42,376 nt of DNA from Chloroflexota bacterium. Lineage in GTDB: Bacteria; Chloroflexota; Dehalococcoidia; Lucifugimonadales; UBA3495. Of the stretch, positions 3,239-32,614 are shown piece by piece. How positions within the stretch are numbered: the stretch's first letter is position 1; every line of letters begins with the position of its first letter. Made by a program: the position numbers and the translations under genes. The stretch covers positions 1 through 42,376 of the forward strand of contig JAPOQH010000022.1 of NCBI GenBank assembly GCA_026710825.1. The letters are read 5' to 3'. The notes below the pieces were generated by a model that saw only the letters and a program-made list of their open reading frames with translations, ran no database searches and was not told the origin of the DNA.

Positions 3239-4453
3239 CTAGCCGGGGATTTCGTCGTAGTGGTCGAAGTTCCCGATCACGTTGGCCTCGTACAGCGCCT
3301 GTACCTCGTCCTCCGAGTAGTCCAGCAGGCCCGTGAGCACGTCTTCGTTGTGCTCGCCGACGCGCGGGGTCGTACCCACGACGGCCGGCGTGCGGCTGAA
3401 GTGCCAGAAATCTCCGGACACGGCAATGGAGCCGGCCAGGAAGTCGTCGACCTCGACCATGGCGCGACGCTCCCACGGATGCGGGTCAGCGGCGGCTTGG
3501 GCGATGGTGTTGACCGGAGCGGCAACCACGTCGTGGTGCGTGAAGTGCGCGATGGCTTCCCTCATGCTCATGTTGGCCATGAGATCACGCATCGCTTGGT
3601 TCACAGTTTCGCCATTGCGGCCGCGCTCGTGGCGCGTGGTGAACCGAGGGTCTTCCAGCCATTCCGGCTTGCCCAGCGCGTTGCAGACGCGATGCCAGTG
3701 GTGCTGGTCGCCCGCGGATATGAGAACCCAACCGTCCGCGCAGGGATACGTGCCCGAAGGCGGCGCGGCCGACTCGCCGCGGCGTGGCTCGATGCCCGCG
3801 CCGTGGTAGGCGGTGATCGGGATTTCGGTGTAGCTGTAGCCGGTGTCGGCCAGGCACGCGTCGATGCACTGTCCCTGTCCCGACGACTCGCGCTCGTGCA
3901 ATGCCGCCAGCGTTCCGATGGCCGCGTGCAGGGCGGTGGTCCGGTCGATGATCGGCACGCCGGCGCGGATCGGAGGCATCCCCTCTTCACCAGTCACCAT
4001 GGCGATGCCGGACATGGTCTGACCGATGGGGTCGTAGCCGATCTGGTCCCGGTACGGGCCAAACTGACCGTAGGCGGACACGTTCACCATGATGATTCGG
4101 GGGTTCAACTCGTACAGCACGTCGTAGCCAAAGCCCATGACGTCGATGGTGCCGGGCCGGAAGTTCTGCAGCAGCACGTCCGACACTCCCACCAGCTTTT
4201 TGAGGACGTCCTTGCCGTCCTCCTTCCGCAGGTCGATGCTCAGGCTCTTCTTGCCACTGTTGTACTGCACCCAGTAGGCGGACTGCTTGCGAACCCAGGG
4301 AGCGTGGTAGCGGGTCTCTTCGCCGCCCAACCGTTCGACCTTGATCACTTCCGCGCCCAGCCGAGCCAGCACTTGGGCGCAACGCGGACCGGCCTGGTGC
4401 CGACCCAGGTCAATTACTCGTATCCCGTCCAGGGGGCCTTTCGCTTCTGCCAT
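3239..4453 (-). CDS. CaiB/BaiF (family III) CoA-transferase
   Basis: A 404-residue family III CoA-transferase. Signature parts are GIRVIDLGRHQAGPRCAQVLARLGAEVIKVE at the N-terminus (Rossmann-like CoA site), SLSIDLRKEDGKDVLKKLV, then VLLQNFRPGTIDVMGFGYD, and the catalytic aspartate, placed at Asp170 in PIIDRTTALHAAIGTL by comparison with formyl-CoA transferase Asp169. The family moves CoA between carboxylic acids through an aspartyl-CoA thioester. Acceptor and donor cannot be read from sequence. AGGAG lies 7 nt before the ATG. It is the last gene of the minus-strand run beginning at the mutase (10269) and is followed by the terminator at 3181-3213. Confidence 0.93.
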   Translation of the reverse strand: MAEAKGPLDGIRVIDLGRHQAGPRCAQVLARLGAEVIKVERLGGEETRYHAPWVRKQSAYWVQYNSGKKSLSIDLRKEDGKDVLKKLVGVSDVLLQNFRPGTIDVMGFGYDVLYELNPRIIMVNVSAYGQFGPYRDQIGYDPIGQTMSGIAMVTGEEGMPPIRAGVPIIDRTTALHAAIGTLAALHERESSGQGQCIDACLADTGYSYTEIPITAYHGAGIEPRRGESAAPPSGTYPCADGWVLISAGDQHHWHRVCNALGKPEWLEDPRFTTRHERGRNGETVNQAMRDLMANMSMREAIAHFTHHDVVAAPVNTIAQAAADPHPWERRAMVEVDDFLAGSIAVSGDFWHFSRTPAVVGTTPRVGEHNEDVLTGLLDYSEDEVQALYEANVIGNFDHYDEIPG

Positions 4454-4608: not shown

Positions 4609-5884
4609 TCACACCGCGCCGTCCGCCTCCAGCGTCGACAATTGCTCCGGCGTGAGTCCGCCCAACGTGCACAGGATCTCTGCGTTGTGTTCGCCCAGCT
4701 TCGGAGGCGTTTCGGCCGGCGCTTGCTCGCACGCCGTCAGCCGCAGCGGCGTGGCCAGCGACCGGAAAGATCCGCCCAGCGTGTCGCTCGTACTCACGTA
4801 CATGCCTCGCGCCTCGAGTTGCGGACAGTCCGCCAGGTCGGCCACGCTCTGGGTCACGCCCATGGAAAACCCGATCTCGGTTAGCCTGCCGGCTACCTCC
4901 CACTTGGGCCGCTGCGACGACCAGCCCTCTATCGCGGGGATAACTTCCTCAAACACGAAATCGGCGTCCGGGAATTGCTGCAGGTACCGGTCGTCACTCT
5001 CGGGCAGGTCCGTGCGTCCGATCAGTTCCCACAATGCTGCCAGCCGCTCGCGAGTGCGAACGCCTGCCATGATGACATAACCATCCGCAGCTTGGAAAAC
5101 GAAGCCTGGATTCAACGAAGCCTGGATTCAACGAAGCCTGTCGCGTTCGCCCCGGCGTCTGCCCCGTTGCCTGGTAGGCGTTCATGTTGCTGATCACGTG
5201 GGACGCCATGCAGTCGTACATCGACACGTCCACGTGCTGCCCTTTTCCGGTCTGCCGCCGCGTTTCCAGCGCCAGCACGATGCCCAAAGCAGTCCAGACC
5301 CCGGGCACTGAGTCCCCCATGTTGTCGCCCACCGCCTGCGGCCTGCCGCCCGGTTCTCCCGTTAGCTCCATCCACCCCGACATCGCCTGTATCGCCAGGT
5401 TGTTCGCTGGCCAGTCCGAGTATGGCCCCCGCGCTCCGTCGCTGTCTCCGTACCCCGTGATCTCAGCGTAAATCAGCCGCGGGTTGATCTCACTCAAGCG
5501 GTCGTAGCCCAGCCCCAGCCGGCGAAAGGCGCCCGGCCCCCAGTTGTCCAGCAGCACGTCGGACTCGGACACCAGGTTTTCAAAGGCTTGCTTGCACGTC
5601 GGATTCCGCAGATCCAGCGTCACCGACTTCTTGTTGCGGTTCACCCCCAGGAATCGGCTGCTCATCTGCCCGGTGTCGGCATCGCCGATGAACGGCCCTC
5701 GGCCTCGTGCCAGGTCTCCCGTCCTCGGTCGCTCGATCTTGATCACCTCCGCGCCCATGTCCGCCAGGATCAAAGAGCAGAACGGCCCCGCGACGATATG
5801 TGTCGCGTCCAACACACGGATTCCCTTCAATGGGAGCGGCAGGTTCTCGGCTGAATCGTTGCGATCAAATACCTCGTCAGACAT
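4609..5884 (-). pseudogene. CaiB/BaiF CoA-transferase broken by a 16-bp tandem duplication
   Basis: Two overlapping minus-strand frames together make one full-length family III CoA-transferase of about 430 residues. The first (from ATG 5884, AAGGA 9 nt upstream) carries GIRVLDATHIVAGPFCSLILADMGAEVIKIE and the catalytic region NMGDSVPGVWTALGIVLAL. It then runs into nonsense after TPGRTRQASLNPGF. The second (from about 5115 to stop at 4609) resumes with NPGFVFQAADGYVIMAG, the normal continuation. The join is a tandem duplication of a 16-bp unit (5101-5132), and removing one copy restores a seamless frame. As read, the product is truncated. It may be a recent inactivation, a population variant, a reversible slip or an assembly error. 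It lies between the metallo-hydrolase and the intact paralogue at 3239. Confidence 0.88.
5101..5140. repeat. 16-bp tandem repeat, 2.5 copies, inside the CoA-transferase gene
   Basis: The unit GAAGCCTGGATTCAAC occurs at 5101-5116 and 5117-5132, followed by the half copy GAAGCCTG at 5133-5140. Because 16 is not a multiple of three, the extra copy shifts the reading frame of the surrounding CoA-transferase. An ancestral state with 1.5 copies gives a continuous protein. Confidence 0.97.
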
Positions 5885-5934
5885 GCTCCATCGTCCTTGG
5901 TTGAGATTGCCCACCCCGTCACGCGGCGGGTGGT

Positions 5935-6720
5935 TCAGGATACAAATTCGGCCAACGACCGCAACGCCGCCCGCGCTCCCTTACGCATCGGCTCAAAGTG
6001 GCTAAAGCAGAGTATCTCAAAATCGATGGAAGCTAGCTTCTGCACTGACTTTTTCGCCGCTTCCATGTCGCTGGAAAACCAACGCGACGGCAGTGTTAAT
6101 CGCTCCTGGTAACGTTGTATCGCGTCGGCTACCAGCAGCACCCCCTCGTTGGGAAAATGCAGACTGATGCTTCCCGGAGTGTGTCCCGGTGTATGCAGCA
6201 CTCTGGCGCCGCCCAACAGCGGCAGGCAATCACCATCATCGAGTATGGTCGTCACCGGAAAATTCGGTGGGGACATCGGCGCCATGAGCGGCCAAAACAA
6301 AGGACGCAGCCAGAGTGGTTTGACCGGATTGGGAATCTTCCTGCCCGGCTCACCGGCCAGGTACGGGGCCTCCAGCCGATGCGCCGACACCGGCGCTCCG
6401 GTCGCCCGCCGCAGGCCCGCCATACCGCCCACGTGGTCCGGATGATAGTGCGTGGATATCAACCGACACACCGAATCCGTACCGTATCCCAACTCGCGCA
6501 GATAATTCAGCACCGGCCGATTGTGTAAAAGACGCCACCCCGCGTCCACCACCGTAATTGACGACTCTCCGCTTTCAGCATCGGGTGTTATTACGATGAA
6601 AGCGCTGGTGGTAACCATTGCACGCTGGTGCAGGCCAGGCACAACTTCACCTACCTCCGCTCGTGGTCCCGGCACACTGGGCGGTCGGTATATTAACTGT
6701 TCAGGAATGGGCCATTCCAT
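5935..6720 (-). CDS. MBL-fold metallo-hydrolase
   Basis: A 261-residue metallo-beta-lactamase-fold hydrolase. The metal site is complete: HYHPDH with His91, His93, Asp95, His96, then His180 in LHTPGHTPGS, Asp199 in VADAI, and a late FSHFEP histidine. Family members hydrolyse thioesters, lactones, lactoylglutathione or other esters. In this operon a CoA-thioesterase or lactonase-like role is plausible but not shown. ATG 6720 is used; an internal Met35 is an alternative because the first 25 residues are Pro-rich and no strong ribosome site is visible. It sits 31 nt after the PaaK-like ligase and is probably cotranscribed with it. Confidence 0.88.
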   Translation of the reverse strand: MEWPIPEQLIYRPPSVPGPRAEVGEVVPGLHQRAMVTTSAFIVITPDAESGESSITVVDAGWRLLHNRPVLNYLRELGYGTDSVCRLISTHYHPDHVGGMAGLRRATGAPVSAHRLEAPYLAGEPGRKIPNPVKPLWLRPLFWPLMAPMSPPNFPVTTILDDGDCLPLLGGARVLHTPGHTPGSISLHFPNEGVLLVADAIQRYQERLTLPSRWFSSDMEAAKKSVQKLASIDFEILCFSHFEPMRKGARAALRSLAEFVS

Positions 6721-6751: not shown

Positions 6752-8152
6752 TTACTCTCTCCGGTCAATCACCCGCCGGGCTTTGAACTGCGTACGCTCA
6801 AACTCCCCTTCGGGTTTCAATTCGACCGATACCCCGACTCCCAACGCCCTGCGCAGCGTGTCTCCCACCTGTCCACGCAACGCCTCCAGACCCTGCGGAC
6901 CGCTCTCCCCGGCGGCTGCCCAGACACCTGCCGAAACCTCCGTCTGCACCGTCAATCGGTCCAGGTAACCGCGTTCCCTCTCTACCACCATGCGGAACTC
7001 GCCGCCGAATTCGTCCCAACCTCGCAGAACGTCCTCCACCCGCGAGGGAAACACGTTCTGCCCCCGGATGATCAGCATGTCGTCTTCGCGACCGTATATC
7101 CCGGACGTCAACGTGGGGTACGTCCGCCCGCATGCGCAGTCGATCATCTCCCAGCGCGCGATGTCCCCCGACCAGTATCGGATCATCGGCTGCGATTCCC
7201 GCTCCAGGTGAGTGTAAACGGGCACGCCTTCGCCCCCCATCGGCGTGAGCTCGTGCGTCTCTGCGTCAACCAGTTGCGTGTAGACGATGTCCTGCCAGAG
7301 GTGCATCCCCCGCTCCAGGTGCCGACACCCGCCGTTCGTCATCCACGGTGTCATTTCGGCCATGCTGCCTTGATCCACCACGTAACACCCGTAGGCGTCC
7401 TCGATAGCCTGGCGGGTCGCCGGCACGCTCGCCCCCGGCTCACCGCTGAAGAACATCACCCGGAACGCGAAATCCGTCCGCGGGTCTATTCCCATTTCCC
7501 GCGCCGTCTCGGCCATGTACAGCGCGTACGACGGCGTGGCGTACAGTGCCGCCGGCTTTACCATCTCCGCCCACTCCACCGCTCGTTCCGTCTGCCCCGG
7601 TGCCCCCGCTCCGAATGGGAAGCACGTTGCTCCCAGCCGTTCGGCGCCTACCAGCGCTCCCCAACTTCCCACATACAGGCTGAACACTGCGGCCACCATC
7701 ACCGTATCTGCCGGCCGTATCCCTGCGCCCCACAGAATCCGCGCGTGCGCCTCGCTTATTCTGTCCCAGTCTCCTCGGCTGATGCCGAACACCGTGGGCC
7801 GCCCGGTGGTCCCCGAGGTCCCGTGGATCCGGTACACCTCCTCCGGCGACACGCACAGGAAACGCCCGTACGGCGGGTGCGCCTCCTGCTCCTGCCGGAC
7901 TTCCTCCTTGGTCAGGATGGGAAGTTGCGCGAACTCGTCCAGGCTTTGGAGATTAGCCGGATCTACCGGCGCGTCGTCCCAAAACTCCCGGTAAAACCCC
8001 GAACGCTCCCAGGCGTACCGGACCTGCCCCCGCAGTTTCTCCAGGATGACCGCATCCCGCTCTGGCGGCGGCATAGTTTCCAGTCGCTTATCCCAATGTT
8101 CCGCGCTACCCGGGGGGACATACGACAGGTCATATTTTGGCGGCCATGACAT
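6752..8152 (-). CDS. PaaK-like AMP-forming CoA ligase (candidate 2-hydroxy-acid-CoA ligase)
   Basis: A 466-residue adenylate-forming ligase of the phenylacetate-CoA ligase type. It has the P-loop HGTSGTTGRPT (110-120), the acyl-pocket and hinge segments, RYWSGDIARW, CACGRTYPTL, and the C-terminal GREDDMLIIRGQNVFPSRVEDVL that carries the lid. It makes acyl-CoA from a carboxylate, ATP and CoA via an acyl-AMP. Phenylacetate is unlikely to be the substrate: the next two genes upstream are a B12-dependent acyl-CoA mutase pair of the 2-hydroxyisobutyryl-CoA type, and known 2-hydroxyisobutyrate-CoA ligases are PaaK-like enzymes encoded beside that mutase. Substrate assignment is therefore inference from context. 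It begins 6 nt after the small mutase subunit ends. Confidence 0.88.
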   Translation of the reverse strand: MSWPPKYDLSYVPPGSAEHWDKRLETMPPPERDAVILEKLRGQVRYAWERSGFYREFWDDAPVDPANLQSLDEFAQLPILTKEEVRQEQEAHPPYGRFLCVSPEEVYRIHGTSGTTGRPTVFGISRGDWDRISEAHARILWGAGIRPADTVMVAAVFSLYVGSWGALVGAERLGATCFPFGAGAPGQTERAVEWAEMVKPAALYATPSYALYMAETAREMGIDPRTDFAFRVMFFSGEPGASVPATRQAIEDAYGCYVVDQGSMAEMTPWMTNGGCRHLERGMHLWQDIVYTQLVDAETHELTPMGGEGVPVYTHLERESQPMIRYWSGDIARWEMIDCACGRTYPTLTSGIYGREDDMLIIRGQNVFPSRVEDVLRGWDEFGGEFRMVVERERGYLDRLTVQTEVSAGVWAAAGESGPQGLEALRGQVGDTLRRALGVGVSVELKPEGEFERTQFKARRVIDRRE

Positions 8153-8158
8153 CTCCGG

Positions 8159-8605
8159 TCACCGCCCCAGCGATTCGTTGATGAATTGCACCATCTCCCC
8201 GGTGAAGGTTCCCACCGGGAATACTCCGTCGATGCCCATCTCGCGCAGGTCGTCAACATCTCCGTCGGGAATCGTCCCTCCCACCAGCAGCATCACGTCG
8301 TCCGCGCCCCGTTCGCCGCGCAGGCCATGCCGCTCCAGCGCGTCCACCATCCTTGGCATCAGGCGCATGTGCGCGCCGGACAGGATGCTGATGCCAACCA
8401 CATCCACGTCCTCCTGTGCTGCCGCCGCGGCCACTTGGTCTGCCGTAACCCGCATGCCCAGGTACACCACCTCCATGCCCGCATCCCGCAGCGCCCGTGC
8501 AATCACCTTCACTCCCCGGTCGTGCCCGTCCAGCCCAAGCTTGGCCAGCAGCACCCGTGGCGGATTTGTGCGCGCATCTTGTCCCGACGAAACCATGTCT
8601 TGCAT
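8159..8605 (-). CDS. B12-binding small subunit of an acyl-CoA mutase (HcmB/IcmB-like)
   Basis: About 148 residues forming one cobalamin-binding domain. It shows the base-off/His-on signature DGHDRG (Asp26, His28, Gly31 from the chosen start), GISILSGAHM contacting the lower nucleotide tail, and GGTIPDGD followed by GIDGVFPVGT. The domain is free-standing, as in isobutyryl- and 2-hydroxyisobutyryl-CoA mutases, and is not fused to the large subunit. The frame opens up to 8674, overlapping the large-subunit gene by 34 nt, but ATG 8605 or ATG 8596 fit the family better. Neither has a strong ribosome site. It lies between the large subunit and the ligase in one minus-strand operon. Confidence 0.9.
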   Translation of the reverse strand: MQDMVSSGQDARTNPPRVLLAKLGLDGHDRGVKVIARALRDAGMEVVYLGMRVTADQVAAAAAQEDVDVVGISILSGAHMRLMPRMVDALERHGLRGERGADDVMLLVGGTIPDGDVDDLREMGIDGVFPVGTFTGEMVQFINESLGR

Positions 8606-8640
8606 CCGGACGACACTATAACGCAGACCGGTGTTATCGT

Positions 8641-10269
8641 CTAAAACACGCCCGGGTCCACGTACTCGCCCCACTCTTCCCGCAGCGCCCCCATGATCTC
8701 GCCCTCCGTGACTCCCTCGGCCACCGCCGACAGAATCGACGGCATGAGGTTGCCATCAGCGCGCGCGGTCTTGCCGATCTCCCGAAGGCAGCGCGCCGCA
8801 TCCGATTCGCTCCGACCCTGACGGCTCGTAACGAGCCGTTCTATCTGCCGTTCCTCCTCCGCATAATCGAACTCGAACAACTCAAGCGATCCAGCCGATG
8901 CCGCCTCATCGCGGTATTCGTCGTTCACGCCAACTATCGTGTAGTCTCCTGACTCCACCCTCTGCTGATAGCGATACGACGCCTGCGCGATTTCGCTCTC
9001 TATGTACCCGTTCCCAACCGCTTCCAGGACCCCGTCCAACATGCTCCCGTTGCCCATCCCGTCGATCCGTTCGATGTAGGCCATGGCCGCTTCTTCCAGC
9101 CGGTTGGTCAACGTCTCCAGGTATGCTGAACCTCCCAGCGGGTCTGGAGTTGCAGCAACGCCCGATTCCTCAGCCAGTATCATCTGCGTCGCCAGCGAGA
9201 TCCGCATCGCCTCCTCAGACGGTATGTCGTACGCCTCGTCGTAGCCGCTCACGTGCAGCGACTGCGTGCCCCCCAGCACCGCCGCCAGCGCCTGCAACCC
9301 GCCCCGCAGGATGTTGTTCAGCGGGTCCTGCCGTACCAGGGTGGACCCCAGCGTCTGCGTGTGGAACCGCATCCGCATCGATTCGGCGCGTGTCGCGCCA
9401 TAGCGGTCTCTCATCAACCGCGCCCACATCCGGCGCGCCGCCCGGAACTTGGCGATCTCCTCGAAAAAGTCGTTGTGTACACCGAAGAAGTGCGACAGTC
9501 GGGGCGCGAACGCGTCCACATGCAGTCCTCGTCGCTGCGCCGATTCCACGTAGGCCATGCCCTGAGCAATGGTAAACGCCAACTCCTGCACCGCGTCGGA
9601 ACCGGCCTCCCGCGTGTGGTAGCCGCTGATCGATATCGTGTACCAGTTGGGCACGTGCTCGGTGCAGAACTCAACGACGTCCGTGGTCAACTTCAGCGCC
9701 GGAGCCGGCGGGAGCGCGAACGTCTTCTGCCCGTGAAACTCCTTGAGCGAGTCGTTCTGCACGGTTCCCCTCAGCGCGGCCCACGGCGTCCCCCGCCGCT
9801 CAGCGGTATGCAGGAACATCGCCAGCAGCACGATGGCGGGATGGTTGATCGTCAGCGACACGCTGGCCTGATCCAATGGTATCCCGTCAAACAGTTCGCC
9901 CATGTCGGCGGCGGTGTCAATCGCCACGCCCAGGCGCCCAACCTCGCCCTCTGCCAACTCGTGGTCCGAGTCATACCCGGTCAGCGTCGGGTGATCAAAG
10001 TCGGTGCTCAACCCGGTCTGTCCGTGCGCCAGCAGGAACCGGTAGCGTTCGTTGGTAGCCCGTGCCGTCCCGAAACCGGCGATCTGCCGCCGCGTCCACA
10101 GCCGCCCCCGGTACATGGTCGGATACGCCCCGCGCGTGAAGGGGAATTCACCAGGCTTCCCCAGGTCCCGCTCCGCGTCAAAATCCGCGGCAGCCAACCC
10201 GTCGGGTGTGTAAAGAGACTCCACAGGCACGCCGGAAAGCGTGCGGTGTTCGTTGGGATCGCTTGTCAT
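8641..10269 (-). CDS. B12-dependent acyl-CoA mutase large subunit, 2-hydroxyisobutyryl-CoA mutase-like
   Basis: A 542-residue TIM-barrel mutase subunit: FTRGAYPTMYRGRLWT, GYDSDH, TISISGYHTREAG (proton-donor-type His218), FFEEIAKFRAARR, the QALAAVLGGTQSLH stretch and DPLGGSAYLE. At the residues that set substrate class it has Ile63 (Tyr in methylmalonyl-CoA, Phe in isobutyryl-CoA mutase), Asp90 and Gln181. Their spacing (27 and 118) equals that of Ile90, Asp117 and Gln208 in 2-hydroxyisobutyryl-CoA mutase as I recall it. This points to interconversion of 2-hydroxyisobutyryl-CoA and 3-hydroxybutyryl-CoA or a close analogue. Odd features are His93 (FDHPT) and His143 (TINHPA), where relatives carry apolar residues. 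ATG 10269 has AGGA 6 nt upstream. No MeaB-type chaperone gene is in the window. Confidence 0.85.
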   Translation of the reverse strand: MTSDPNEHRTLSGVPVESLYTPDGLAAADFDAERDLGKPGEFPFTRGAYPTMYRGRLWTRRQIAGFGTARATNERYRFLLAHGQTGLSTDFDHPTLTGYDSDHELAEGEVGRLGVAIDTAADMGELFDGIPLDQASVSLTINHPAIVLLAMFLHTAERRGTPWAALRGTVQNDSLKEFHGQKTFALPPAPALKLTTDVVEFCTEHVPNWYTISISGYHTREAGSDAVQELAFTIAQGMAYVESAQRRGLHVDAFAPRLSHFFGVHNDFFEEIAKFRAARRMWARLMRDRYGATRAESMRMRFHTQTLGSTLVRQDPLNNILRGGLQALAAVLGGTQSLHVSGYDEAYDIPSEEAMRISLATQMILAEESGVAATPDPLGGSAYLETLTNRLEEAAMAYIERIDGMGNGSMLDGVLEAVGNGYIESEIAQASYRYQQRVESGDYTIVGVNDEYRDEAASAGSLELFEFDYAEEERQIERLVTSRQGRSESDAARCLREIGKTARADGNLMPSILSAVAEGVTEGEIMGALREEWGEYVDPGVF

Positions 10270-31125: not shown

Positions 31126-31707
31126 TCAGGCCGTGCCGTGGGATTGTTCGGCCAGGGAACTGCGCACCTCGGCCCATCCGCTCGCCATGGATCGTCCTGG
31201 GAATGGCGACTGCTCCGCCTCCGGTATCACTTTCACCGCCACCAGCACTGGCCCGGGACGGCGCATGATCTCCTCCATGCCGATCAATAGCTCTTCCAGT
31301 TTGTCAAACCGACAGGCGTGAGCGTAGCCCGCGCTCCGGGCCATGCCCTCGAAGTCTATCCGGTTGAGTCCTGGGATCGGCGTGCCGTCCGTCGAGGTGT
31401 GGTCGGCATCTTCGAGTACGAAGTGCACCAGGTTTTCCGGCGCCACTTCACCTATCGTCGCCAGGCCCGCCAGGTCTGTGCGAAGCGTGGCGTCGCAATC
31501 CAGAACCAGGATGCGTCGACCCGGTTGCGCCAGCGACAGTCCCAACCCGACGGCAGGAGCCCGGTCCATGCAGTCGGTGAGGTCCACGTCTAAGTCCCTG
31601 CGCTCCGAAACTTGGTGCCATTCGCGCAGAGCCGCGGATGTGGACACCACCAGGGCCTCCTCACGGTGGTAGTTGATGGCGCGAGCGACCTCGCGGGACG
31701 GAATCAT
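31126..31707 (-). CDS. Degenerate TPP-binding-domain protein (ComE-like paralogue)
   Basis: A 193-residue paralogue of the TPP-binding subunit at 32018-32614, aligned end to end (NYHREEALVVSTSAAL, VGLGLSLAQPGRRILVLD, TPIPGLNRIDFEGMARSAGYAHACRFDKLEELL). The thiamine-diphosphate/Mg motif is altered: GDGSLLMN of the paralogue is CDATLRTD here (71-78), and FNNG is LEDAD (about 98-102). The metal-binding Asp and an acid in place of Asn remain, but both glycines are lost, so TPP binding is doubtful. It may be a structural or regulatory subunit. Its ATG overlaps the stop of the membrane protein gene upstream (31704-31707), indicating coupled translation. It is the last gene of the operon. Confidence 0.82.
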   Translation of the reverse strand: MIPSREVARAINYHREEALVVSTSAALREWHQVSERRDLDVDLTDCMDRAPAVGLGLSLAQPGRRILVLDCDATLRTDLAGLATIGEVAPENLVHFVLEDADHTSTDGTPIPGLNRIDFEGMARSAGYAHACRFDKLEELLIGMEEIMRRPGPVLVAVKVIPEAEQSPFPGRSMASGWAEVRSSLAEQSHGTA

Positions 31708-32017: not shown

Positions 32018-32614
32018 TCAGTTATCGCCGGCCAAGGCCGCGGTGACTTCCTGATATGCCTGTTGGGCGGTGCGGGATGCGCGCTGGCGGAACTGCACCG
32101 GCGTGTTCTCGATCTCCGGCTCCACGGCCAGGTGGATGAACACGGGACCCTCAGCCGCCAGGACCTCGCCGATCCCGGTTGTGAAGTCTTCAAGGTTGTC
32201 GAAGGAGAAGACGGCGGCGTAGCCGGCGCCTCGGGCGATCTCTTGCCAATCGGTCACTCCATCGGAACCGGGAATTGGCTGACCGCCGGTTACGGCGTAA
32301 ACCCCGTTGTTGAACAGGAAGTGGTAGAAGTTCTTGGGAGCCTTGGTCGAAGTGGTGACGAGTGCGCCCAAGTTCATCAGCAGGCTGCCGTCGCCGTCCA
32401 GCACCATGACTTTCCGGCCCGGTTGCGCCAGAGCGATGCCGAGACCGACGTTGCTGGCCTTGCCCATGGCTCCGGAGATTGGGAGATCGAGGTTCTGATT
32501 GCTCGTAACGGTGGGCAGGCCAAACCGGACGTTGCCGGCGTTCATAGTGGGGACGATGACGGCGTCTTCGCGATTGTTGTCAATGACGCGGACGGCGTCG
32601 GTGTTGTTGATCAT
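32018..32614 (-). CDS. Sulfopyruvate/phosphonopyruvate decarboxylase-like TPP-binding subunit (ComE-like)
   Basis: A 198-residue protein equal in size to the beta (ComE) subunit of sulfopyruvate decarboxylase. It is the TPP-diphosphate half of a thiamine enzyme: VGLGIALAQPGRKVMVLDGDGSLLMNLGAL has the GDG motif (74-76), and FNNGVYAVTGGQPIPG (101-116) completes the metal-binding site. The matching pyrimidine-binding half is the next gene upstream (32670-33182), so the active enzyme would be a heteromer. Sulfopyruvate, phosphonopyruvate or another 2-oxo acid are all possible substrates. AGGAG precedes the ATG. It is the second gene of the operon driven by the promoter at 33248-33276. Confidence 0.85.
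   Translation of the reverse strand: MINNTDAVRVIDNNREDAVIVPTMNAGNVRFGLPTVTSNQNLDLPISGAMGKASNVGLGIALAQPGRKVMVLDGDGSLLMNLGALVTTSTKAPKNFYHFLFNNGVYAVTGGQPIPGSDGVTDWQEIARGAGYAAVFSFDNLEDFTTGIGEVLAAEGPVFIHLAVEPEIENTPVQFRQRASRTAQQAYQEVTAALAGDN

What the first reader, a model, noticed from the sequence alone, without database searches (positions are those of the whole stretch)
6752..10269. B12 mutase operon with the residue signature of 2-hydroxyisobutyryl-CoA mutase
The large subunit has Ile63, Asp90 and Gln181. Their spacing (27 and 118 residues) equals that of Ile90, Asp117 and Gln208 of 2-hydroxyisobutyryl-CoA mutase as recalled. Methylmalonyl- and isobutyryl-CoA mutases have Tyr or Phe at the first site. 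The separate B12 subunit and a PaaK-like ligase follow directly, the same partners known around that mutase in other phyla. The pathway would activate a tertiary 2-hydroxy acid and convert it to a 3-hydroxyacyl-CoA. Finding it in a Chloroflexota-like genome, with CoA-transferases as possible second route to the CoA ester, is worth testing.
Basis: partly seen in the sequence, partly recalled or inferred. Interest (0 to 1): 0.72.

Follow-up and report, generated by a model that had tools for sequence, protein, structure and literature searches.

The report
B12 mutase operon for 2-hydroxyisobutyrate

Summary
8641-10269(-) is a B12-type acyl-CoA mutase large subunit, 8159-8614(-) its separate B12 subunit, 6752-8152(-) a CoA ligase, 26 and 6 bases apart. 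Ile63, Asp90 and Gln181 align to Ile90, Asp117 and Gln208 of HcmA (4r3u). Methylmalonyl-type mutases have Tyr/Ala/Arg there, isobutyryl-type Phe/Ala/Gln. The ligase is not merely PaaK-like: it falls with the solved 2-hydroxyisobutyrate-CoA ligase (6hdw) in a clade (100/99) apart from PaaK. In loci not chosen through the ligase, it lay within 8.3 kb of 20 of 20 Ile/Asp/His/Gln mutases and 0 of 9 Tyr/Phe-type mutases. Correction: the mutase is no orthologue of Aquincola HcmA (47%). It is a separate deep branch with His93 where HcmA has Met120, found in Dehalococcoidia/SAR202 relatives; the same signature occurs in haloarchaea and Bacilli. An AU test rejects grouping it with the methylmalonyl-type rows, modestly (p 0.027). 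Three other Chloroflexota genomes carry the Aquincola type. No MeaB gene lies in the operon; one lies elsewhere in the genome. An MBL-fold gene and CoA-transferases follow; here the first CoA-transferase is split by a frame change. Substrate, direction and stereochemistry are predictions. New variant of a known kind.

The parts
8641..10269 (-). Mutase large subunit, 542 aa, Ile63/Asp90/His93/Gln181
8159..8614 (-). B12-binding small subunit, 151 aa as read from GTG (the start codon is uncertain)
   Evidence: PF02310 94 bits; DGHDRG motif with the His ligand; solved relatives 2yxb and 4r3u_C
6752..8152 (-). Ligase of the 2-hydroxyisobutyrate-CoA ligase clade, 466 aa
   Evidence: 6hdw_A 527 bits against PaaK 222; 31-row clade with 6hdw, 100/99
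5935..6720 (-). MBL-fold hydrolase, 261 aa, conserved neighbour in close relatives, role unknown
   Evidence: PF00753 98.2 bits; in 13 of the 29 loci compared, window included
4612..5914 (-). CoA-transferase family III gene, split by a frame change
   Evidence: Two pieces in two frames; residues 1-296 and 251-421 of a relative's protein match in different frames
3239..4453 (-). Intact CoA-transferase family III, 404 aa; a possible but untested second route to a CoA ester
   Evidence: PF02515 373.5 bits; 96% to the L006 counterpart

Best explanation
The genes at 6752-10269 encode the two subunits of a B12-type acyl-CoA mutase with the Ile/Asp/Gln residues of 2-hydroxyisobutyryl-CoA mutase, and a ligase of the 2-hydroxyisobutyrate-CoA ligase clade; together they are predicted to activate 2-hydroxyisobutyrate, or a close tertiary 2-hydroxy acid, and to isomerise it to 3-hydroxybutyryl-CoA. 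Predicted steps: the ligase uses ATP and CoA to make 2-hydroxyisobutyryl-CoA. The small subunit brings adenosylcobalamin, with His of DGHDRG as lower ligand. The adenosyl radical would abstract H from a methyl group, and the CoA-carbonyl group would move from the tertiary carbon to that methyl. Ile63 would leave room for the tertiary carbon (Tyr in MCM, Phe in ICM), Asp90 would bind the hydroxyl, and Gln181 would stand in for the carboxylate-binding Arg of MCM. His93 (Met120 in HcmA, Leu in MCM) may alter how the hydroxyl is held and so the stereochemistry. Shown: gene order, residues, phylogeny, predicted fold, operon conservation. Inferred: substrate, direction, stereochemistry, role of His93.
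For: Residue match. Ligase clade with 6hdw and apart from PaaK. Among loci with at least 4 kb on one side of the mutase, leaving out those reached through the ligase or picked after one search had shown it, the ligase is present in 20 of 20 IDHQ loci (window included) and 2 of 3 IDMQ, and in 0 of 6 YALR, 0 of 3 FAMQ/FALQ and 0 of 1 IDFQ loci; Fisher p 1.0e-7 for 20/20 against 0/9, relatedness ignored. Same-strand spacing of 26 and 6 bases. Mutase at 88% or more in 11 of 13 same-genus genomes, 5 of 22 other same-family genomes (69-74%) and 2 of 24 same-order genomes (63-67%). The own genome has separate MCM-type (YALR, L001) and ICM-type (FAMQ, L002) mutases, so this third one is not the missing MCM. 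A MeaB gene lies elsewhere in the genome. One ligase clade serves both Aquincola-type and this type of mutase. PMC7176365 reports hcl beside mutase genes or beside a 2-hydroxyisobutyryl-CoA lyase gene (passages).
Against: Overall identity does not discriminate: 47% to Aquincola HcmA, 42-59% to YALR rows and 52-62% to FAMQ rows, the 62% being a partial row. A clade with HcmA is neither shown nor rejected (92/98 for a group that also holds haloarchaeal FAMQ rows; AU p 0.455). Met120 is replaced by His. No MeaB or GntR gene in the operon. No enzyme of this branch is linked to an assay by any result here. No full-length 3HCDH-type dehydrogenase was found in the 92% complete own genome: the Methylibium enzyme has no hit at E 1e-15 and PF02737 gives five partial, borderline hits. 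The route onward from an (S)-product would then need another dehydrogenase.
Confidence: 0.73

Rival explanations
1. Same chemistry, different substrate: the branch with His93 would work on a bulkier or differently substituted tertiary 2-hydroxy acid, with 2-hydroxyisobutyrate at best a side substrate.
For: His93 replaces Met120 and the motif around Gln181 differs (NDSLKEFHGQK against ADILKEYMAQK). The branch is deep. MBL and CoA-transferase neighbours are not those of the Methylibium, Xanthobacter and Agrobacterium operons. Acetone-type clusters are also expressed on butanone (PMC7888143, passages).
Against: The ligase belongs to the same clade as the enzyme solved as 2-hydroxyisobutyryl-CoA synthetase, and that clade serves both mutase types.
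Confidence: 0.15
2. The mutase is an isobutyryl- or pivalyl-type mutase in which Ile and Asp arose for another reason, and the ligase activates an unrelated acid.
For: The group lies among FAMQ isobutyryl-type rows; Gln181 is shared with them. The best identity outside the branch is to a partial FAMQ row (62%).
Against: Ala at the Asp site in all 179 Phe- or Tyr-type rows; no HCL-clade ligase near any of 9 Tyr/Phe-type mutases (14 if my plasmid picks are counted).
Confidence: 0.05
3. The operon runs the other way or feeds from acetone: 2-hydroxyisobutyryl-CoA is made by a thiamine-dependent enzyme, or from 3-hydroxybutyryl-CoA, and the ligase is secondary.
For: Haloarchaeal plasmid L075 has a thiamine-enzyme gene directly before HCL and mutase and L076 the same order by blast; the own genome has 18 related thiamine-enzyme places.
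Against: No such gene in the operon here; the best own-genome match is 33% identical. An ATP-using ligase in the operon points to the free acid as input.
Confidence: 0.07

Closest known systems
2-hydroxyisobutyryl-CoA mutase HcmAB with ligase HCL, Aquincola tertiaricarbonis (4r3u, 6hdw)
   Same: Two-subunit mutase; Ile/Asp/Gln; predicted fold; HCL partner of the same clade
   Different: 47% identity, separate branch; His93 for Met120; gene order large-small-ligase instead of small-ligase-MeaB-large (order as seen in Methylibium, Xanthobacter and Agrobacterium); no MeaB or GntR gene; MBL-fold and CoA-transferase genes follow
(R)-3-hydroxybutyryl-CoA-forming mutase RcmAB, Kyrpidia tusciae and Bacillus massiliosenegalensis (PMC7176365, PMC9727194, passages only)
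   Same: Same reaction type; a Robertmurraya (Bacillus) massiliosenegalensis protein has the same IDHQ signature
   Different: No Kyrpidia sequence could be compared. The Bacilli IDHQ rows form their own branch. Which of the two massiliosenegalensis forms is the IDHQ one is unresolved: the wild-type letters of the engineered enzyme (PMC11599936) fit it in no register
Haloarchaeal IDHQ mutase operons (Natrinema zhouii, Halomarina plasmids)
   Same: IDHQ signature; HCL within the same subclade
   Different: Thiamine-enzyme gene and MeaB gene beside them; mutase only 55-56% identical
Methylmalonyl-CoA mutase and isobutyryl-CoA mutase
   Same: Fold, B12 subunit family
   Different: Tyr/Ala/Arg and Phe/Ala/Gln at the three sites

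Membership tests
2-hydroxyisobutyryl-CoA mutase (HcmAB/RcmAB) | Ile and Asp at positions 90 and 117, Gln at 208 (numbering recalled) | tested here: met
2-hydroxyisobutyryl-CoA mutase (HcmAB/RcmAB) | Separate large and B12 subunits | tested here: met
2-hydroxyisobutyryl-CoA mutase (HcmAB/RcmAB) | Operon with HCL | tested here: met
2-hydroxyisobutyryl-CoA mutase (HcmAB/RcmAB) | MeaB/MeaH chaperone gene in the operon (usual, PMC7176365; not defining of the enzyme) | tested here: not met
   a MeaB lies on another contig
2-hydroxyisobutyryl-CoA mutase (HcmAB/RcmAB) | One clade with characterised HcmA | tested here: inconclusive
   92/98 for a wider group; AU p 0.455 for all 38 Asp-type rows as one clade
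2-hydroxyisobutyryl-CoA mutase (HcmAB/RcmAB) | Isomerises 2-hydroxyisobutyryl-CoA | not testable with these tools
   needs an enzyme assay
2-hydroxyisobutyrate-CoA ligase (HCL) | Clade with 6hdw, apart from PaaK | tested here: met
   20 columns invariant in 31 HCL rows and absent from 7 outgroup rows
2-hydroxyisobutyrate-CoA ligase (HCL) | Activates 2-hydroxyisobutyrate | not testable with these tools
   needs an enzyme assay
Methylmalonyl-CoA mutase | Tyr89 and Arg207 (numbering recalled) | tested here: not met
   Ile and Gln instead; grouping with YALR rows rejected, AU p 0.027
Isobutyryl-CoA mutase | Phe at the first site, Ala at the second, Gln at the third | tested here: not met
   Ile and Asp instead; only Gln shared

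The most novel reading that the evidence does not exclude
A further lineage of 2-hydroxyacyl-CoA mutase, with His93 at the position of Met120, is widespread in a SAR202/Dehalococcoidia group and lets these bacteria feed on tertiary 2-hydroxy acids; its His/Asp pair holds the hydroxyl differently and gives the (R)-product or takes a bulkier substrate.
Probability: 0.35. Interest if true: 0.65.

Novelty: new variant of a known kind. Interest (0 to 1): 0.48.

Why it matters
2-Hydroxyisobutyrate metabolism has been detected in few organisms, and PMC7176365 (passages) suspects a natural source not yet identified. A mutase of this branch in 11 of 13 genomes of one Chloroflexota genus, with the ligase beside it in every relative whose flanks could be read, plus the Aquincola-type operon in three other Chloroflexota genomes, points to a non-pollutant source of such acids. 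It also offers natural variants (His, Gln, Glu, Tyr or Phe at one site) of an enzyme that is slow with its native substrate and is being engineered for synthetic pathways (PMC11599936, passages).

Tried and rejected
Rejected: methylmalonyl-CoA mutase; plain PaaK; isobutyryl-CoA mutase. His93 as a single shared gain was tested: one clade of the 19 Asp/His rows is rejected (AU p 0.0013), so the His arose more than once or was lost in several branches.

Led nowhere: the primary mutase papers are not held, so the roles of Ile90 and Asp117 in substrate fit and stereospecificity are recalled. Identifying the Kyrpidia enzyme: class and phylum searches around a Bacillota genome found no HCL at E 1e-120 (0 of 4; 0 of 398), and the letters of the engineered massiliosenegalensis enzyme fitted no row held (the one four-letter fit, P0298 at its start, is at a wrong place). 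Upstream DNA of the mutase shows no shared element by eye in 11 aligned loci. No Rfam match in the window at gathering scores. Promoter-like matches (4, against 1.5 expected) were not used. Own-genome searches for a thiamine lyase (best 33%) and for a 3HCDH-type dehydrogenase gave no clear partner. Fold comparison: families absent from the list are not excluded. A first version of the ligase count (22 of 22 against 0 of 14) included plasmid loci picked after one search had shown the ligase on some of those records; it was replaced by the count.
Full report
WHAT IS THERE. On the - strand, in order, lie a 542-aa mutase large subunit (8641-10269), a 151-aa B12 subunit (8159-8614), a 466-aa CoA ligase (6752-8152), an MBL-fold protein (5935-6720) and CoA-transferase family III genes (4612-5914, split by a frame change, and 3239-4453). 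The first four gaps are 26, 6, 31 and 20 bases. The large subunit's start at 10269 has AGGA a few bases upstream; the small subunit's start is uncertain.

RESIDUES. Ile63, Asp90 and Gln181 align to chain positions 101, 128 and 219 of 4r3u_A, that is 90, 117 and 208 in the recalled numbering. Human and M. tuberculosis MCM have Tyr, Ala and Arg; the P. shermanii entry 5req has Phe because it is the Y89F mutant (its title). Position 93 is His where HcmA has Met and MCM has Leu. I write signatures as four letters for positions 63, 90, 93 and 181. The window is IDHQ, Aquincola-type HcmA IDMQ, MCM YALR, isobutyryl-type FAMQ (the name 'isobutyryl-type' rests on recalled Phe/Gln of isobutyryl-CoA mutase). 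In one search, 360 database proteins plus 4 references gave 164 IDHQ, 114 FAMQ, 48 YALR, 16 FALQ, 8 IDYQ, 5 IDMQ, 2 each of IDFQ, IDQQ and IDEQ, 1 VDHQ, 1 FAFQ and 1 with gaps. These 360 are the best 120 of each of three searches, each of which scored about 8000 candidates, so they are not an even sample.

PHYLOGENY. In a first tree of 69 rows the Chloroflexota and haloarchaeal IDHQ rows and one IDFQ row formed a clade (99/97) sister to IDMQ/VDLQ (83/95). With wider sampling and the four trait columns masked (68 rows), the Asp-type rows and four haloarchaeal FAMQ rows fell in one group (92/98), apart from YALR (99/93). Twelve rows, eleven from Chloroflexota loci (window included) and one unnamed protein (VDHQ), were one clade (100/100). 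How that clade joins the haloarchaeal IDHQ/IDEQ, Bacilli and IDMQ rows was unresolved, so the sister relation is not firm. AU tests: all 38 Asp-type rows as one clade not rejected (p 0.455); the twelve rows with the 14 YALR rows rejected (p 0.027); all 19 Asp/His rows as one clade rejected (p 0.0013). These groups were named after seeing a tree, so the p values are lenient. Overall identity of the window protein is 47% to Aquincola HcmA, 42-59% to YALR rows and 52-62% to FAMQ rows, so identity alone would not have placed it.

LIGASE. Best solved relative 6hdw_A, named 2-hydroxyisobutyryl-CoA synthetase, 527 bits, against 222 for the best PaaK. In a 40-row tree, 31 rows including the window, 6hdw and the ligases beside IDHQ and IDMQ mutases form a clade (100/99); two actinobacterial plasmid ligases (Pseudonocardia, Rhodococcus) are next, and PaaK rows lie outside (long outgroup branches were flagged). 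NCBIfam phenylacetate models score far below their cut-offs (281 of 646 and 283 of 700 bits).

OPERON CONSERVATION. One search covered 60 genomes (own plus 59 relatives). A mutase of this branch (63% identity or more) is in the own genome, 11 of 13 same-genus, 5 of 22 other same-family and 2 of 24 same-order genomes. HCL-like ligases are in 7 of 294 genomes of the class (E up to 1e-95) and 7 of 400 of the phylum (E up to 1e-120), own included in both. In one search I looked for an HCL-clade ligase in loci with at least 4 kb on one side of the mutase: 22 of 22 IDHQ, 5 of 6 IDMQ, 0 of 9 YALR, 0 of 3 FAMQ, 0 of 2 FALQ, 0 of 2 VDLQ and 0 of 1 IDFQ loci had it (six of the 22 were confirmed as IDHQ). 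Left out there: loci with shorter flanks, four loci reached through the ligase (all have it) and one weak relative without it (L038). The 12 plasmid loci in that count were my pick of 60 listed rows, five of them made after one search had shown the ligase on the same records. Without plasmids the count is 20 of 20 IDHQ (window included), 2 of 3 IDMQ, 0 of 6 YALR, 0 of 2 FAMQ, 0 of 1 FALQ and 0 of 1 IDFQ; Fisher p 1.0e-7 for 20/20 against 0/9, or 1.4e-7 without the window, relatedness ignored. The ligase is mostly within 2.6 kb; in L010 it is 8.2 kb away on the other strand. The MBL-fold gene and a family III CoA-transferase recur in 13 of the 29 loci compared, all close relatives of the window.

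TWO MUTASE TYPES IN ONE PHYLUM. Four Chloroflexota genomes of other families, found through HCL, were read. Three carry IDMQ mutases 64-66% identical to Aquincola HcmA with the ligase beside them; the fourth contig shows the ligase alone.

OUTSIDE CHLOROFLEXOTA. Natrinema zhouii carries, in order, a thiamine-enzyme gene, HCL, mutase, B12 subunit and MeaB on a plasmid; Halomarina shows the same order by blast. Robertmurraya massiliosenegalensis and Neobacillus mesonae proteins are IDHQ as well, on a different branch. PMC7176365 (passages) says that B. massiliosenegalensis has both HcmAB and RcmAB. PMC9727194 (passages) says that its RcmAB interconverts (R)-3-hydroxybutyryl-CoA. It is tempting to equate IDHQ with Rcm, but the wild-type letters V92, E102, E137 and P163 of the engineered massiliosenegalensis enzyme (PMC11599936, passages) fit the IDHQ proteins of that species in no register. 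That paper calls its enzyme Hcm and assays it as (R)-forming. So the equation stays open.

REST OF THE PATHWAY. The own genome has a YALR and a FAMQ mutase, one good MeaB on another contig and one borderline, no hit to the Methylibium 3-hydroxybutyryl-CoA dehydrogenase at 1e-15 and only five short, borderline PF02737 hits. An (R)-product, or a short-chain-type dehydrogenase as induced in acetone-grown Desulfotomaculum geothermicum (PMC8084838, passages), would fit. That is inference, and the genome is 92% complete.

LITERATURE. Searches of the held library for 2-hydroxyisobutyryl-CoA with Chloroflexi (2 papers), 2-hydroxyisobutyric acid with Chloroflexota (1 paper, listing only), and wider mixes with SAR202, Dehalococcoidia and sponge (25 of 72 listed; 8 of 369 listed) showed no title, abstract or passage on this operon in Chloroflexota. 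Most of those papers were not opened and the primary mutase papers are not held, so a mention is possible. The SAR202 genome paper PMC5395668 (passages) has one mention of a mutase, methylmalonyl-CoA mutase, and many CaiB-type CoA-transferases.

VERDICT. The finding is real and its reading is well supported by sequence. It is a new branch of a known enzyme kind, with the substrate, direction and stereochemistry still to be measured.

Noticed in passing
window 4612-5914 (-): The first CoA-transferase family III gene after the MBL gene is split by a frame change (sequencing error or decay); relative L006 has it whole.
   Followed up: partly
L004 11694-12767, L012 11630-12707, L011 11664-12892 (similar ORFs by eye in L007 and L010): Between the two mutase subunit genes of some relatives sits an insert of two ORFs: a GHKL-ATPase-like one (above the Pfam cut-off in L004 and L012, below in L011) and a short one weakly like the STAS-like DUF4325 (below cut-off in L011 and L012, no match in L004).
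   Followed up: partly
L125 13770-14330; similar ORFs in L123, L124, L127, L128: A hexapeptide-repeat ORF (Pfam run on L125 only) lies near the mutase in one Chloroflexota family; Methylibium and Agrobacterium hcm operons also hold a gene annotated gamma carbonic anhydrase family, and Xanthobacter a similar one.
   Followed up: no
L081 and L085 (Shinella, Sinorhizobium plasmids): Val/Asp/Leu/Gln mutases nested in the HcmA clade, with aminotransferase, enoyl-CoA hydratase and AMP-ligase genes and no HCL-clade ligase: probably another substrate.
   Followed up: partly
P0121-P0131, P0272, P0273: The site of His93 is Tyr, Phe, Gln or Glu in other Asp-type mutases, so this position varies by branch.
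   Followed up: partly
upstream of the mutase in L004, L006, L008, L009, L012, L015, L016: A PLD-domain gene precedes the mutase in seven relatives but has no significant match in the window (Pfam run on L004 and L006).
   Followed up: no
window 31126-31707 and 32018-32614 (-): Two neighbouring ORFs each match the C-terminal domain of thiamine-diphosphate enzymes.
   Followed up: no
own genome: No convincing full-length 3HCDH-type dehydrogenase was found.
   Followed up: partly
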